The translations under genes and the position numbers were made by a program. The notes below the pieces were generated by a model that had not been told where the DNA came from, did not search any database, and saw nothing but the letters and a program-made list of their open reading frames with translations. A DNA stretch of 55,236 nucleotides from Succinatimonas hippei YIT 12066 (GTDB lineage Bacteria; Pseudomonadota; Gammaproteobacteria; Enterobacterales; Succinivibrionaceae). Location: contig NZ_GL830946.1 of the NCBI RefSeq assembly GCF_000188195.1, forward strand, positions 1 to 55,236, given 5' to 3'. How positions within the stretch are numbered: position 1 is the stretch's first letter; every line of letters starts with the position of its first letter. Shown piece by piece: positions 33,738 through 38,139 of this stretch.

Positions 33738-33976
33738 TAGATTTTCACATCATTTCCGGGCAAGAACCAAATCTTCCAGTTAACCTCAAAATTTACAGTA
33801 TAACCAAAATCGTCTTTATTTTTTTTGTTTGAAAGACATCATTTTTTTTACGCTTTTTAGCTTGTATCTTTAAAATTTAACTTTGATGTATTAATGGTGT
33901 TTTTTGTGTAAATATAGTTTTATACTGCTTTATAAGTTTAACTTTAGTTAATTTTTAATCTTATATGGAGAAAAAG

Positions 33977-35104
33977 ATGACAAGTAAAAAAGGATTAAAA
34001 TTTTTGCCTCCCTCTATGTCAATTAAAGAGGCTGTCATTCTTTTACAAAAGCTTGCTAAAGTAAACATGGTTATAGGCTCTATGAAAAGTGAGTTCGGTC
34101 ATTCATTAGTCAGAGACTCGTTGGTAAGTTTATTTTCTTTATCGGAATCTGTTCAATCCACACGAATAGAGGGTACTCAAGTTACTTTCTATGATATGTT
34201 TGAAAAATCTTCCAATAAACAAAAAGAATGGGAAAAACAAGAGGTTCTTAACTATCAGGAAGCGCTAAAACATGGGCTGTTATTAATTGATAGCGGAATG
34301 CCTTTTTCAACTCGGTTAATAAAAGAATTACATAGAATTTTAATGACTAATGCTCGCGGCACAAATTCAGCCGGTGGAGAGTTTCGCAAAATACAAAACT
34401 TTATAGGGCCTGATTCTAAAATTGAACATGCTGTATACATTCCTGTAGAAGCGCAAACTATTTCGAACTATATGGAAAATTTAGAGTTTTTCGTCAATGG
34501 TATACATCATAGTAGTTTCATTGAGATTAATCAGCCTGATTTGTTTATTATTGATGAACATGCAGATCCTCTATTAAAAATAGCTATTATGCATGCTCAA
34601 TTTGAATCAATACATCCTTTCCTTGACGGTAATGGCAGATTAGGAAGAATTTTAATAGCTTTAATGGCTGTTAAATACGGTTTAGTTAATGTTCCTGTTT
34701 TTTTAGTTAGTGAAGAATTGGAGAAAGAGAGAAGTCGTTATTACGATTTATTAAATGGTATTAGGGGAGAAGATCCGGATTGGTTTGCTTGGCTTAGCTT
34801 TTTTGTTGATTGCTGCGGACGTATGTCTGAACAATTAGTAAAAAAAATGCAAACGTCTACTCAGTTGGCCGAACAGGGGTTGAAAAAAATAAAGCTTGAT
34901 TCAGAGAGAAAAGCTTGGTTGTTATCATTCCAATGTCCGAGACTTACGGTTAAGGATGTATCTCAAATCTGTAAAATGAATATTACTACAGCTCGTAAAG
35001 CTTTAAATGCATTAGTAGAATATGATTTACTATTTACATCTAAGAATATAAAAAGAAATAAATCTTATATAAATTACAATTTAATCAGGATATTAAGTAA
35101 TTAG
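33977..35104 (+). CDS. Fic-family AMP/UMP-transferase with N-terminal inhibitory helix and C-terminal HTH
   Basis: This 375-residue protein has a Fic core with IHPFLDGNGRLGR, the full H-x-F-x-D-G-N-G-R-x-x-R active-site motif (His213). The N-terminal domain carries STRIEG (Ser61 to Gly66), which fits the inhibitory motif [S/T]-x3-E-[G/N] of class II, self-restrained Fic proteins. The C terminus reads as a winged helix (LTVKDVSQICKMNITTARKA). The family transfers AMP or similar groups to protein hydroxyls; the target is unknown. The start at 33977 follows GGAG six bases upstream. The gene is visibly more AT-rich than its neighbours, which suggests transfer. Confidence 0.92.
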   Translation: MTSKKGLKFLPPSMSIKEAVILLQKLAKVNMVIGSMKSEFGHSLVRDSLVSLFSLSESVQSTRIEGTQVTFYDMFEKSSNKQKEWEKQEVLNYQEALKHGLLLIDSGMPFSTRLIKELHRILMTNARGTNSAGGEFRKIQNFIGPDSKIEHAVYIPVEAQTISNYMENLEFFVNGIHHSSFIEINQPDLFIIDEHADPLLKIAIMHAQFESIHPFLDGNGRLGRILIALMAVKYGLVNVPVFLVSEELEKERSRYYDLLNGIRGEDPDWFAWLSFFVDCCGRMSEQLVKKMQTSTQLAEQGLKKIKLDSERKAWLLSFQCPRLTVKDVSQICKMNITTARKALNALVEYDLLFTSKNIKRNKSYINYNLIRILSN

Positions 35105-35107
35105 AAA

Positions 35108-35140
35108 AAAGAGGGTGACGATAGTCATCCTCTTTGTTGC
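35108..35140. terminator. Bidirectional terminator between fic and the DUF1537 gene
   Basis: A 12-pair stem (35108-35119 with 35124-35135, one G-U) around GATA is followed by TTGTTGC on the plus strand and TTTTTTC on the minus strand. It separates two convergent genes. Confidence 0.85.
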
Positions 35141-35146
35141 TTATCC

Positions 35147-36466
35147 TTAAATCTCCATCTTCCTCTTTAAATATTGAATACTTGCCGTAATTGTAGATGC
35201 ATCTGTAGCAGATGACGAGGATGTTACGTATTTAAGACCATTAAAGTCTCCGCCTAAGATTTCACCGTAGGCAGTGAGCGGCAGAACTTGTCCTAATATG
35301 TTAAGTCCCGATGATTTTAGTTCTCGGCATACGGCAAGAGTGTATTCGGCTCCGGTGGAGTAAATGGCTTTTACGTTGGGATCTCCGAGAAGAACGCGTC
35401 TTGCAATTTGTCCGTAAGCCGAGCTGGTTAAATCCAAAGCCTCAAGACTTGATCTTCCTGTTTTTTCAAGCTCCGTTTCATATGTCAATATTTGCTGGGA
35501 TGTGGCACCTAAGTGATCGGATACGACAAAGATGATTTTGTATTCATCGCATTTTGCAAGATACTCATTTACCACGCGATCGATTTCGGCAGCTCGGCGC
35601 TGATCATCTTCAATCAGTGCTGCGCTGTCAACTGATATAAGCAGGACTTGTTCTTCAAGGCGCAGCTTCTCGACTTGGGCTGCAATGAGCGGACTGATAC
35701 CGCCTACCAAGCCGAAAATTTTTTGATTGGCAGCTTTATGTGATTCTGCCTCACGCATTACTTTTCTTGCAAGAGTTGCAGTAAAAGGCCCCGGATCTAC
35801 TGCAAGGAATTTGATTCCTGAGGCTAACACGGCGTCGGCAATAGTATTAATGTCCTCTTGAGAAGTACAGTCAAGAACGATGGCCCGGGCTCCTTTTTCA
35901 GCCAATTCTTTAAGTCTATTGCTTAAATGCTCGGTTCCTTTAATGAATTCTTTTAGGTATAAGACCTCTGTATGGTAGCGGAATTTCTCTGAAAAAAGCT
36001 CTGCAACGCGTCCGCCTTGGGCAGGTCGCATATCATCAAGCCCTGCAAGTGATTTTTGCAGCGGCAGTCCGTCAACTAATATGTAACCGCCTACGTTAAT
36101 ACGTTTTAGATCGGGAAAAGCAGGAACTACGATGGCTACGCGATCAGGCTCGCCTAAGGCGTCAAGCAACGCCTGGGTTTCAGTGCAGGTATTGCCGCGC
36201 ATTGAAGGATCAATGCGTTTTGCATAAAGCTTTACTTCGGGATTTTTCAGAAGTTTTCCGGCATAGAAAACCAATTGATAACTTTGTTCCGGAGTTAGGG
36301 TACGGCTGTTGGTGGAATAAACCAGACAGTCAAATTTAGCCGTGGCCGGATCTTTTAGTCCTTTATTGCTGATAAGGGAACAAACCGTACAACGATTTTT
36401 TTCAAGCATGGCGGCAACTGAACTGCCGCCGGTGATTTCATCTGAAATTACAACGCATTCAGCCAT
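35147..36466 (-). CDS. DUF1537 / four-carbon acid sugar kinase-like protein
   Basis: This 439-residue protein matches the two-domain sugar-acid kinase family (YgbK/OtnK/DtnK type). The N-terminal substrate domain shows SDEITGG, then STNSRTLTPEQ, KRIDPSMRGN and VPAFPDLKRINVGGYILVDG in the family order. In the C-terminal nucleotide domain, GQVLPLTAYGEILGG is present. The following segment, usually V-T-K-G-G-x-x-G-D as I recall it, reads VTSSSSATD, so the Lys and glycines are gone. Activity with ATP is therefore uncertain. It lies 5 bases after the enzyme I gene on the same strand with AGGA as ribosome-binding site. Canonical members phosphorylate four-carbon sugar acids. Confidence 0.8.
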   Translation of the reverse strand: MAECVVISDEITGGSSVAAMLEKNRCTVCSLISNKGLKDPATAKFDCLVYSTNSRTLTPEQSYQLVFYAGKLLKNPEVKLYAKRIDPSMRGNTCTETQALLDALGEPDRVAIVVPAFPDLKRINVGGYILVDGLPLQKSLAGLDDMRPAQGGRVAELFSEKFRYHTEVLYLKEFIKGTEHLSNRLKELAEKGARAIVLDCTSQEDINTIADAVLASGIKFLAVDPGPFTATLARKVMREAESHKAANQKIFGLVGGISPLIAAQVEKLRLEEQVLLISVDSAALIEDDQRRAAEIDRVVNEYLAKCDEYKIIFVVSDHLGATSQQILTYETELEKTGRSSLEALDLTSSAYGQIARRVLLGDPNVKAIYSTGAEYTLAVCRELKSSGLNILGQVLPLTAYGEILGGDFNGLKYVTSSSSATDASTITASIQYLKRKMEI

Positions 36467-36471
36467 GGTTT

Positions 36472-38139
36472 TTATCCTAAAGTTGAAATTCTGGCACGCA
36501 ACATAAGTACACTTGAAGGCGCAACGGAGATTTCATCGACGCCTATCCTTACCAGCTCATGTGTAAAACCTTCATCGGCAGCAAGTTCGCCGCATACTCC
36601 GACCCAAATTCCCGCATCATGCGCGTTTTTCACTGTATATTCAATAAGGCGGATAACGGCATGATGGTAAGGGTTTAAAAATTTACTGATTTCAGCATTT
36701 TGGCGATCTACTGCCAATGTAAATTGCGTTAAATCGTTAGTACCGATACTAAAGAAATCTACATATTGGGCAAGTTCGTCGCTGATTATGGCAGAGGCCG
36801 GCGTCTCGATCATAATTCCGAGACTTACATTATGAGAATAAGGAATTGAGTTTTTACTGAGATCTTTTTTTACTTCATCACATAAAGCTATGCACTGCTT
36901 GACTTCTTCAACCGTGGTAATCATCGGGAACATGATAGCGAGGTTACCGTATATTGAAGCGCGATAGAGAGCTTTGAGCTGGGTTTTGAATATTTCAGGG
37001 CGGGTAAGACAGATACGTACTGCCCGCATGCCCATCGCCGGATTGTCCTCGGGCTTTAGCATAAAATAATCTGCTGTTTTATCTGCGCCTATATCAAGGG
37101 TACGGATAATGACCTGTTTGCCGGACATGCCTTCAAGTACTTGTTTGTAAATGTTAAATTGAGTTTCCTCACTCGGAAAATCAGGAGATGACAGATAAAT
37201 ATATTCACTGCGGAAAAGTCCGATGCCTTCTGCGTCCGAGGCTTTGGCAAGTTCTATGTCGTCGGCAGAGCCGATGTTGGCATAAAGATGAATTTTTCTG
37301 CCGGATAAAGTCAAAGTCTCTTTGCCGCGGAATTGCTCAAGGCGAGCACGCAGCGCATCTTCCGTACGTTTTCTTTCGGTAAATTCAGCTATAGTCGCCT
37401 CATCGGGCTCAATATAAACAATACCGCTGCCGCCGTCGACGATAGCAAATTTTCCTTCAAGGGAAGGGTTAAGTGAAGGTCCGATGCAGATAACCGAGGC
37501 AATGCCCATAGTTCTTGCAAAGATCACCGTATGCGATCTTGAAGATCCGTCTGAAGTAATAATGCCGGATACTGAGTCTTTATCAAGCTGGACGGTTTCA
37601 CTCGGCGACAGATCATCAGTTGCTAAAATTACAGGCTGGCCTTGAGAAGGAGAGATTTTCTGCGGGATGAGCTGACCTGAATTTAAAAGCAGCAACTCGG
37701 TTACGCGACGAGAAATATCAATTACATCCGCAGCACGTCCTTGCATGTAATCGTTATCCATGCTTTTGAACATGTCGGCAAATTTTTTGGAAACGAAGTC
37801 TACAGCGTATTCAGCATTGACGTGTTCGTTTTCGATTAACTCATTTATTTGAGAGACGTAATCCGGATCGTCGAGCATCATCTGGTGAATTTGAAAGACC
37901 ACTGCATTCTGTTCACCGACTTTTTCAAGAGATGCTTCATAAAGATTGCCAAGCTGAGCTATTGCATCGGTTCGAGCTTTTTCAAAGCGTTCAAGCTCGG
38001 CTTTCATGTCAGAAACTTCGTGCCGCTCAGAAGGAAGAGCGTGGCGTTTTAAAAAAGAGATGCGGCCGAAAGCTATGCCGCGGCTTGCAGGCGTACCGCG
38101 GATCTGAAGTTTTGCTTTTTGACTGGTTGGCATTTCCAT
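36472..38139 (-). CDS. PTS enzyme I (phosphoenolpyruvate-protein phosphotransferase)
   Basis: This 555-residue protein has the complete enzyme I layout. A helical HPr-binding region (about 35-145) is followed by the phosphohistidine segment GSSRSHTVIFARTMGIAS (His203) and the PEP-binding barrel (GIGLFRSEYIYL, MIETPASAIISDELA, FSIGTNDLTQFTLAVDR). The catalytic cysteine is in WVGVCGELAAD (Cys516). It begins operon transcription with a DUF1537 gene 5 bases downstream. No HPr, EIIA or other PTS gene is adjacent. It may be the general ptsI or a dedicated paralogue; sequence alone does not decide. Confidence 0.88.
   Translation of the reverse strand: MEMPTSQKAKLQIRGTPASRGIAFGRISFLKRHALPSERHEVSDMKAELERFEKARTDAIAQLGNLYEASLEKVGEQNAVVFQIHQMMLDDPDYVSQINELIENEHVNAEYAVDFVSKKFADMFKSMDNDYMQGRAADVIDISRRVTELLLLNSGQLIPQKISPSQGQPVILATDDLSPSETVQLDKDSVSGIITSDGSSRSHTVIFARTMGIASVICIGPSLNPSLEGKFAIVDGGSGIVYIEPDEATIAEFTERKRTEDALRARLEQFRGKETLTLSGRKIHLYANIGSADDIELAKASDAEGIGLFRSEYIYLSSPDFPSEETQFNIYKQVLEGMSGKQVIIRTLDIGADKTADYFMLKPEDNPAMGMRAVRICLTRPEIFKTQLKALYRASIYGNLAIMFPMITTVEEVKQCIALCDEVKKDLSKNSIPYSHNVSLGIMIETPASAIISDELAQYVDFFSIGTNDLTQFTLAVDRQNAEISKFLNPYHHAVIRLIEYTVKNAHDAGIWVGVCGELAADEGFTHELVRIGVDEISVAPSSVLMLRARISTLG

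What the first reader, a model, noticed from the sequence alone, without database searches (positions are those of the whole stretch)
35147..38139. Two-gene operon of PTS enzyme I and a DUF1537 kinase-like protein with an altered nucleotide site
Seen: the enzyme I is complete (His203, Cys516). The protein encoded 5 bases later has clear DUF1537 substrate-domain motifs, but the late glycine-rich segment I expect as V-T-K-G-G-x-x-G-D reads VTSSSSATD. No HPr, EIIA or transporter is adjacent. Known: DUF1537 members are ATP-dependent kinases of four-carbon sugar acids, and enzyme I moves phosphate from PEP to HPr. Inference: the pair may link PEP-derived phosphate or PTS status to a sugar-acid step, or the DUF1537 protein may have become a non-kinase partner. 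I know of no described system of this form.
Basis: partly seen in the sequence, partly recalled or inferred. Interest (0 to 1): 0.6.

Follow-up and report, generated by a model that had tools for sequence, protein, structure and literature searches.

The report
Enzyme I paired with dead sugar-acid kinase
In one branch of gut bacteria (Succinivibrio relatives) the enzyme that starts the phosphate-relay sugar system is always encoded next to a former sugar-acid kinase that has lost its catalytic and ATP-site residues yet is strictly preserved, which suggests a dead kinase recruited as a partner or regulator of that relay.

Summary
The window holds a two-gene operon: an intact PTS enzyme I (EI; His203, Cys516) and, 5 bp downstream, a DUF1537 protein. 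A terminator hairpin follows. The pair is not accidental. DUF1537 orthologs (54-73% identity) occur in 40 of 57 sampled genomes of the family (8 of 14 genera). EI lies upstream on the same strand in all 38 genomes where the contig allows a test. No ortholog appeared in a 369-genome class sample.

The nucleotide site is not displaced. Eight residues invariant in 19 reference DUF1537 kinases (D10, S87, G121, P145, G373, K416, G418, G421) are replaced in all or nearly all 38 orthologs. dN/dS is 0.01-0.07, so this is a maintained pseudokinase, not a decaying gene. Its sister group is an intact, pdxA-linked D-threonate-kinase-like paralog.

EI keeps every catalytic residue tested and is the only such non-Ntr EI detected in the window genome. 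The ancestral cysZ-ptsI-crr locus has itself become a pseudo-EI plus pseudo-EIIA. I infer that EI drives a mainly regulatory PTS and that the pseudokinase modulates EI. EI binding and ligand are untested. I found no description of such a system in the papers searched.

The parts
36472..38139 (-). PTS enzyme I (EI), 555 aa, catalytically intact; first gene of the operon
   Evidence: TIGR01417 543.6 bits; H203, R310, R346, N468, D469, R479, C516, E518 identical to 16 canonical EIs in all 37 orthologs
37531..37533 (-). EI phosphorylated His203 codon (E. coli His189 equivalent)
36592..36594 (-). EI catalytic Cys516 codon (E. coli Cys502 equivalent)
36475..36478 (-). AGGA Shine-Dalgarno-like motif inside the last EI codons, 8 nt before the DUF1537 ATG; suggests translational coupling
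   Evidence: sequence
35147..36466 (-). DUF1537 (SBD_N + NBD_C) pseudokinase, 439 aa; second gene
   Evidence: PF07005 and PF17042 above cut-off; orthologs in 40 of 57 family genomes; dN/dS 0.01-0.07
36428..36442 (-). Altered substrate-domain motif DDxTG -> DEITG (residues 9-13)
   Evidence: D10 19/19 in references; E 37/38 in orthologs
36185..36214 (-). Altered motif IDSTxRGNxG -> IDP(S/A)xRGN(T/A)C (residues 85-94), with a clade-specific Cys94
   Evidence: S87->P 37/38; G94->C 37/38
35345..35353 (-). Altered nucleotide-domain motif GG(D/E) -> GAE (residues 372-374)
   Evidence: G373 19/19 in references, A 38/38 in orthologs
35201..35227 (-). Lost nucleotide loop, reference (T)KxGxxG -> VTSSSSATD (residues 414-422)
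   Evidence: K416, G418, G421 19/19 in references; S/T, mostly S, and T in orthologs
35103..35135 (-). Rho-independent terminator-like hairpin with U-run just after the DUF1537 stop; closes the operon as two genes
   Evidence: fold -13.8 kcal/mol, z -4.19; hairpin also flagged on the opposite strand

Best explanation
This is a two-gene operon for a working EI of a mainly regulatory PTS and a dedicated pseudokinase partner. Shown: (1) EI has all the tested residues for PEP-dependent autophosphorylation and transfer to HPr. (2) The DUF1537 protein descends from a D-threonate-kinase-like enzyme and lost its kinase and ATP-site residues on one ancestral branch. (3) It has since been kept under purifying selection as strong as on EI, always just downstream of EI. 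Inferred: EI passes phosphate to HPr and then to free EIIA-Glc proteins, some of them encoded in sugar ABC-transporter operons. The pseudokinase binds EI, probably carries a metabolite in the relic sugar-acid pocket, and sets EI activity, stability or dimerisation, as GAF domains do in EI-Ntr.
For: Adjacency on the same strand in 38 of 38 testable genomes across 8 genera, with EI immediately upstream. In the relatives set the ortholog of this EI is absent where the pseudokinase is absent. Eight residues invariant in 19 references are replaced clade-wide, while the sister paralog beside pdxA and a GntP permease keeps them. dN/dS is 0.01-0.07 for the pseudokinase, like EI. D9, R55, D86, R90-N92, R122 and other N-domain residues are retained, compatible with ligand binding without catalysis. 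EI catalytic residues are identical in 37 of 37 orthologs. The window genome has no PF02378 EIIC and no PF03613 EIID, two HPr and an EIIA-Glc with both His; in relatives such EIIA sit in sugar ABC operons. In G015 the EIIA-HPr-EIIC operon has no EI gene of its own and the only other intact EI detected is ptsP, so this EI probably serves as the general EI there.
Against: No physical or genetic interaction data exist. The AlphaFold model of the pseudokinase failed (mean pLDDT 41.7), so neither the pocket nor an EI interface could be examined. The pair arose once, in one clade, so the conservation counts are not independent origins. EIIC families other than PF02378 were not searched. Adjacency could reflect shared expression only; in genus g2 the spacer is often 130-560 bp, and about 2 kb in one genome.
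Confidence: 0.5

Rival explanations
1. Operon of convenience: the DUF1537 protein is a pseudoenzyme with a metabolic or regulatory role of its own (for example binding a sugar acid and controlling another protein) and merely shares EI's expression.
For: No interaction data. In genus g2 the spacer widens to 130-560 bp without loss of adjacency, and in one genome three small ORFs lie between the genes. EI and gltX also stay neighbours in many genomes, although gltX is divergent.
Against: 38 of 38 adjacency over 8 genera although the wider neighbourhood varies, and many spacers of 5-30 bp. EI ortholog and pseudokinase occur in the same genomes of the relatives set.
Confidence: 0.25
2. The DUF1537 protein is still an enzyme with changed chemistry: phosphate from EI~P, HPr~P or EIIA~P reaches a sugar acid without ATP, perhaps through clade-specific Cys94 (EIIB-like), as the PTS-driven dihydroxyacetone kinase replaces ATP with the PTS.
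For: Cys94 replaces a conserved Gly in the substrate motif in 37 of 38 orthologs; Cys4 and Cys47 are invariant; ATP-site residues are lost while many N-domain residues stay.
Against: No invariant His for the usual His-to-His relay. Cys94 is Phe in one ortholog, which also lost E10 and P87. S87 and D10, conserved in all references, are replaced too. No dedicated EIIA or EIIB is adjacent.
Confidence: 0.08
3. It still phosphorylates a small molecule with a nucleotide, through a rebuilt nucleotide site and with a substrate other than C4 sugar acids.
For: The fold domains are retained and NBD_C still scores above its cut-off. Several pseudokinases in other families were later found to be active (general knowledge).
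Against: The Lys and all conserved Gly of the C-terminal loop, the second Gly of GGD, and the Asp and Ser of the N-domain motifs are gone clade-wide.
Confidence: 0.1
4. Decaying pseudogene or passenger with no function.
For: Motifs are lost; one ortholog (L176) shows further changes at the old active site.
Against: dN/dS 0.01-0.07, 100 invariant positions among 38 orthologs, and intact reading frames in all full-length copies.
Confidence: 0.02

Closest known systems
D-threonate kinase DtnK / DUF1537 four-carbon acid sugar kinases (PF07005 + PF17042; NF047819; PDB 4xfm, 4xfr, 1yzy)
   Same: Two-domain architecture over the full length; tree sister to pdxA-linked DtnK-like paralogs
   Different: Eight residues invariant in 19 references are replaced; no PdxA2 or transporter partner; linked to EI instead
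Canonical enzyme I (PtsI, TIGR01417)
   Same: Three EI domains and all catalytic residues tested
   Different: C-terminus about 34 residues shorter than in other families; not in a ptsHI-crr operon; partnered with a pseudokinase
EI-Ntr (PtsP) with N-terminal GAF sensor
   Same: Conceptual parallel: an EI with an attached metabolite-sensing module (general knowledge)
   Different: Here the candidate sensor is a separate, unrelated protein; no GAF domain is present; a separate ptsP exists at G000:C22
PTS-linked dihydroxyacetone kinase (DhaKLM)
   Same: Link between the PTS and a kinase-fold protein that does not rely on ATP as donor (general knowledge)
   Different: No DhaM or DhaL homologue is adjacent, and no conserved phospho-acceptor His was found
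Incomplete regulatory PTS, e.g. Brucella melitensis (PMC2937029)
   Same: EI, HPr and EIIA present while no PTS permease was found with the two families searched
   Different: The Brucella system uses EI-Ntr, NPr and EIIA-Ntr; here a sugar-type EI paralog with a pseudokinase partner

Membership tests
DUF1537 / four-carbon acid sugar kinase fold family | SBD_N and NBD_C domains above the Pfam gathering score | tested here: met
   150.3 and 62.2 bits against 25 and 28.3
DUF1537 / four-carbon acid sugar kinase fold family | Substrate-site motifs DDxTG and (I/V)DSTxRGN | tested here: not met
   DEITG and IDPSMRGN; the same change in 37 of 38 orthologs
DUF1537 / four-carbon acid sugar kinase fold family | Nucleotide-site motifs GG(D/E) and KxGxxG in the C-domain | tested here: not met
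   GAE and SSSSAT; G373, K416, G418, G421 are 19/19 in references and lost in the orthologs
D-threonate kinase equivalog NF047819 | Score of at least 450 bits | tested here: not met
   139 bits; intact pdxA-linked paralogs also fall short at 235-258 bits, so the cut-off alone is not diagnostic
D-threonate kinase | ATP-dependent kinase activity on a C4 sugar acid | not testable with these tools
   needs purified protein
PTS enzyme I (TIGR01417) | Score of at least 341.7 bits and three EI domains | tested here: met
   543.6 bits; PF05524, PF00391, PF02896
PTS enzyme I (TIGR01417) | Phospho-His and the PEP-site Arg, Asn, Asp, Cys, Glu residues | tested here: met
   H203, R310, R346, N468, D469, R479, C516, E518 conserved in 37 of 37 orthologs
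EI-Ntr (PtsP) | N-terminal GAF domain | tested here: not met
   no GAF match in EI; ptsP is a separate gene at G000:C22
Pseudokinase (in the sense of a maintained dead kinase homologue) | Loss of conserved catalytic residues with maintained purifying selection | tested here: met
Pseudokinase (in the sense of a maintained dead kinase homologue) | No measurable phosphotransfer | not testable with these tools
   needs an assay

The most novel reading that the evidence does not exclude
A kinase-derived pseudoenzyme has become a dedicated metabolite-sensing subunit of enzyme I, a new kind of EI control. It belongs to a wholesale rewiring of the PTS in this clade, in which the ancestral cysZ-ptsI-crr locus was turned into a pseudo-EI plus pseudo-EIIA pair while this EI-pseudokinase operon took over phosphate entry.
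Probability: 0.3. Interest if true: 0.75.

Novelty: new variant of a known kind. Interest (0 to 1): 0.6.

Why it matters
Regulatory inputs to enzyme I, the entry point of the PTS, are few, and kinase-derived pseudoenzymes as PTS components are not described in the papers I could search. If true, a four-carbon sugar-acid kinase was recruited as a dedicated EI partner in a group of rumen and gut bacteria, and the PTS there was rebuilt around pseudoenzymes. The system is compact (two genes) and directly testable by co-purification and PEP-driven phosphorylation assays. It also warns annotators: these genes would be named four-carbon acid sugar kinases, which they are probably not.

Tried and rejected
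Chance adjacency: rejected by 38/38 conservation. Nucleotide site intact at another position: rejected; the alignment has no shift and the sister paralogs keep the motif in the same columns. Decaying gene: rejected by dN/dS. Direct His-phosphate relay through the DUF1537 protein: no invariant His. Wider spread: no ortholog in 369 sampled genomes of the class; the one genome-contig scan gave only a 'Candidatus Avisuccinivibrio' fragment, but that scan uses exact peptide patterns and is insensitive. The first DUF1537 structure-function paper (PNAS 2016) is not held, so motif roles rest on conservation and general knowledge. Literature searches for a pseudokinase-EI link, and for EI paralogs with pseudoenzymes, found nothing relevant. 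The viral-contig scan gave two partial DUF1537 hits of no use. The NF047819 cut-off does not discriminate, since intact paralogs miss it too. Co-occurrence with the pseudo-EI is not independent evidence, because all bearers form one clade.

Full report
Observation. On the minus strand of the window, 36472-38139 encodes a 555-aa enzyme I and 35147-36466 a 439-aa DUF1537 protein. EI matches TIGR01417 at 543.6 bits, against a cut-off of 341.7, and has His203 and Cys516. The DUF1537 protein passes both Pfam domain cut-offs. The genes are 5 bp apart, and an AGGA motif lies in the last EI codons, 8 nt before the next ATG. A strong hairpin with a U-run follows the second stop codon (fold z -4.19). 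The Fic-domain gene beyond it is convergent. The operon is therefore most simply two genes.

Conservation of the pair. The window is contig 8 of a 2.3-Mb genome, 98% complete. Its nearest named relative in the held collection is a 'Candidatus Avisuccinivibrio' MAG, so I place it in or near Succinivibrionaceae; the name rests on that one hit. DUF1537 orthologs (54-73% identity) occur in 40 of 57 same-family genomes, in 8 of 14 genera. Of these 40, 38 have a contig that reaches the EI side, and in all 38 EI lies upstream on the same strand. Spacers range from 5 bp to 560 bp, with one of about 2 kb that holds three small ORFs. The divergent gltX neighbour is shared by many. In the relatives set, genomes without the DUF1537 ortholog have no EI of this type, only much more distant ones. 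A PrfC tree of 22 genomes puts the 11 bearers in one clade (100/100), so the pair was probably assembled once. A sample of 369 genomes of the class has no ortholog.

The DUF1537 protein is a maintained pseudokinase. I aligned 38 full-length orthologs with 19 DUF1537 kinases: own-genome copies, pdxA-linked paralogs of the same family, plasmid-borne OtnK and other kinases. These references are annotated by homology, not assayed here. Seventeen positions are invariant in the references. Eight of them are replaced in the orthologs: D10 (E in 37), S87 (P in 37), G121 (K/H/R/N), P145 (D/E/Q), G373 (A in 38), K416 (S/T), G418 (mostly S) and G421 (T in 38). D9, R55, G91, R122, Q264 and G372 are retained. 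The change is thus the same across genera and hits both the substrate motifs and every C-terminal Gly/Lys position expected for the nucleotide site. A new Cys94 appears in 37 of 38. No His is invariant. Pairwise dN/dS among close relatives is 0.01-0.07, about the same as for EI. A maximum-likelihood tree makes the group monophyletic (100/100, stem 0.96). It is sister (96/80) to intact DtnK-like paralogs encoded beside a PdxA-family gene and a GntP-family permease in the same family. Catalysis was therefore lost on one stem branch and the protein then kept.

The EI is a working EI by sequence. All 37 aligned orthologs keep His203, Arg310, Arg346, Asn468, Asp469, Arg479, Cys516 and Glu518, as do 16 canonical EIs. 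It ends about 34 residues earlier than EIs of other families; the sugar-operon EIs of the same clade are also shortened, so this is not unique to the pair. In the window genome the other EI homologues are ptsP (C22) and a degenerate copy (C44). No PF02378 EIIC and no PF03613 EIID was found there; other EIIC families were not searched. Two HPr genes exist. In relatives that have a glucose-type operon of EIIA, EI, HPr and EIIC, that operon has its own EI at 36-46% identity. In G015 that operon is EIIA-HPr-EIIC with no EI, and the only other intact EI detected is ptsP. There the EI studied here is the likely donor.

Rewired PTS around the pair (followed in passing). In the clade, the locus beside cysZ, where E. 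coli has ptsHI-crr (general knowledge), encodes an EI homologue with Cys516Ala, Asn468Ser and Asp469Ser in all five copies aligned. Downstream is an EIIA-Glc homologue that lacks both active-site His (His75 and His90 of E. coli) in all 11 genomes examined. Intact EIIA-Glc copies lie elsewhere; in several genomes they sit in a sugar ABC-transporter operon, and in the window genome beside a periplasmic sugar-binding protein and a sugar isomerase-like gene. This suggests, but does not show, that phosphate entering through the window EI serves mainly regulation of non-PTS uptake.

Mechanism. Steps shown: intact EI residues; lost kinase residues; selection; invariable linkage; descent from a DtnK-like kinase. 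Steps inferred: EI binding by the pseudokinase, a ligand in the relic pocket, and control of EI. I give this whole chain 0.5. The non-kinase part alone I would put near 0.85. The main rival is shared expression without contact (0.25). A PTS-driven Cys94 reaction is possible but weakly supported (0.08), as is residual nucleotide-dependent activity (0.1).

Relation to what is known. By fold it is a DUF1537 protein; by defining motifs it fails as a DUF1537 kinase, so I do not file it as a four-carbon acid sugar kinase. EI is a bona fide EI. Functionally the nearest parallels are EI-Ntr with its GAF sensor, the PTS-linked DhaKLM system, and incomplete regulatory PTSs such as that of Brucella (PMC2937029). 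The papers searched mention no EI-pseudokinase pair, but most subscription papers are not held, including the key 2016 DUF1537 paper.

Limits. The structure prediction failed; no interface or pocket analysis was possible. All bearers form one clade, so counts of genomes overstate independence. Most genomes are draft assemblies, and absences are subject to incompleteness.

Noticed in passing
L067:6336-8539 (own genome G000:C44); also L150, L151, L155, L156, L217, L220, L224-L227: A conserved shadow pair: pseudo-EI (Cys516Ala, Asn468Ser, Asp469Ser; His kept) followed by an EIIA-Glc homologue lacking both active-site His in 11 of 11 genomes, beside cysZ where E. coli has ptsHI-crr. In the relatives it occurs in every genome with the EI-pseudokinase pair and in none without..
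   Followed up: partly
L211:3558-4040, L213:2733-3215, L214:2402-2893, L216:2247-2732: Stand-alone EIIA-Glc genes with intact His inside sugar ABC-transporter or sugar-isomerase operons (ABC ATPase and permease, EIIA, transketolase), suggesting direct PTS control of ABC uptake..
   Followed up: partly
L040:6220-7120, L041, L043:4566-5890, L045, L048 (genus g2): The paired EI carries long low-complexity N-terminal extensions (about 95-430 aa). Similar starts (SDxN) in several species suggest the extensions are real; in L043 the tail is rich in His, Asp and Cys (metal-binding-like)..
   Followed up: no
L157:982-3175 (G015:C53): Sugar PTS operon EIIA-HPr-EIIC that lacks the EI gene present in the equivalent operon of relatives (e.g. 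L145)..
   Followed up: partly
L065:6000-8384 and L070:5728-8034: Natural fusion of a DUF1537 kinase with a PdxA-like dehydrogenase domain in one protein (794 and 768 aa); by sequence its motifs are intact..
   Followed up: no
L043 between 7520 and 9359: Three related small ORFs (123-136 aa) lie between EI and the pseudokinase in one genome (cluster c21)..
   Followed up: no
window 33965-35104 (+): Fic/DOC-family protein gene, convergent with the operon, sharing the terminator hairpin region..
   Followed up: no
L064:9543-9803 (own genome HPr, G000:C109): HPr keeps the His15 motif (GVHARPAG), but the usual Ser46 region reads KQGIF, with no Ser..
   Followed up: no
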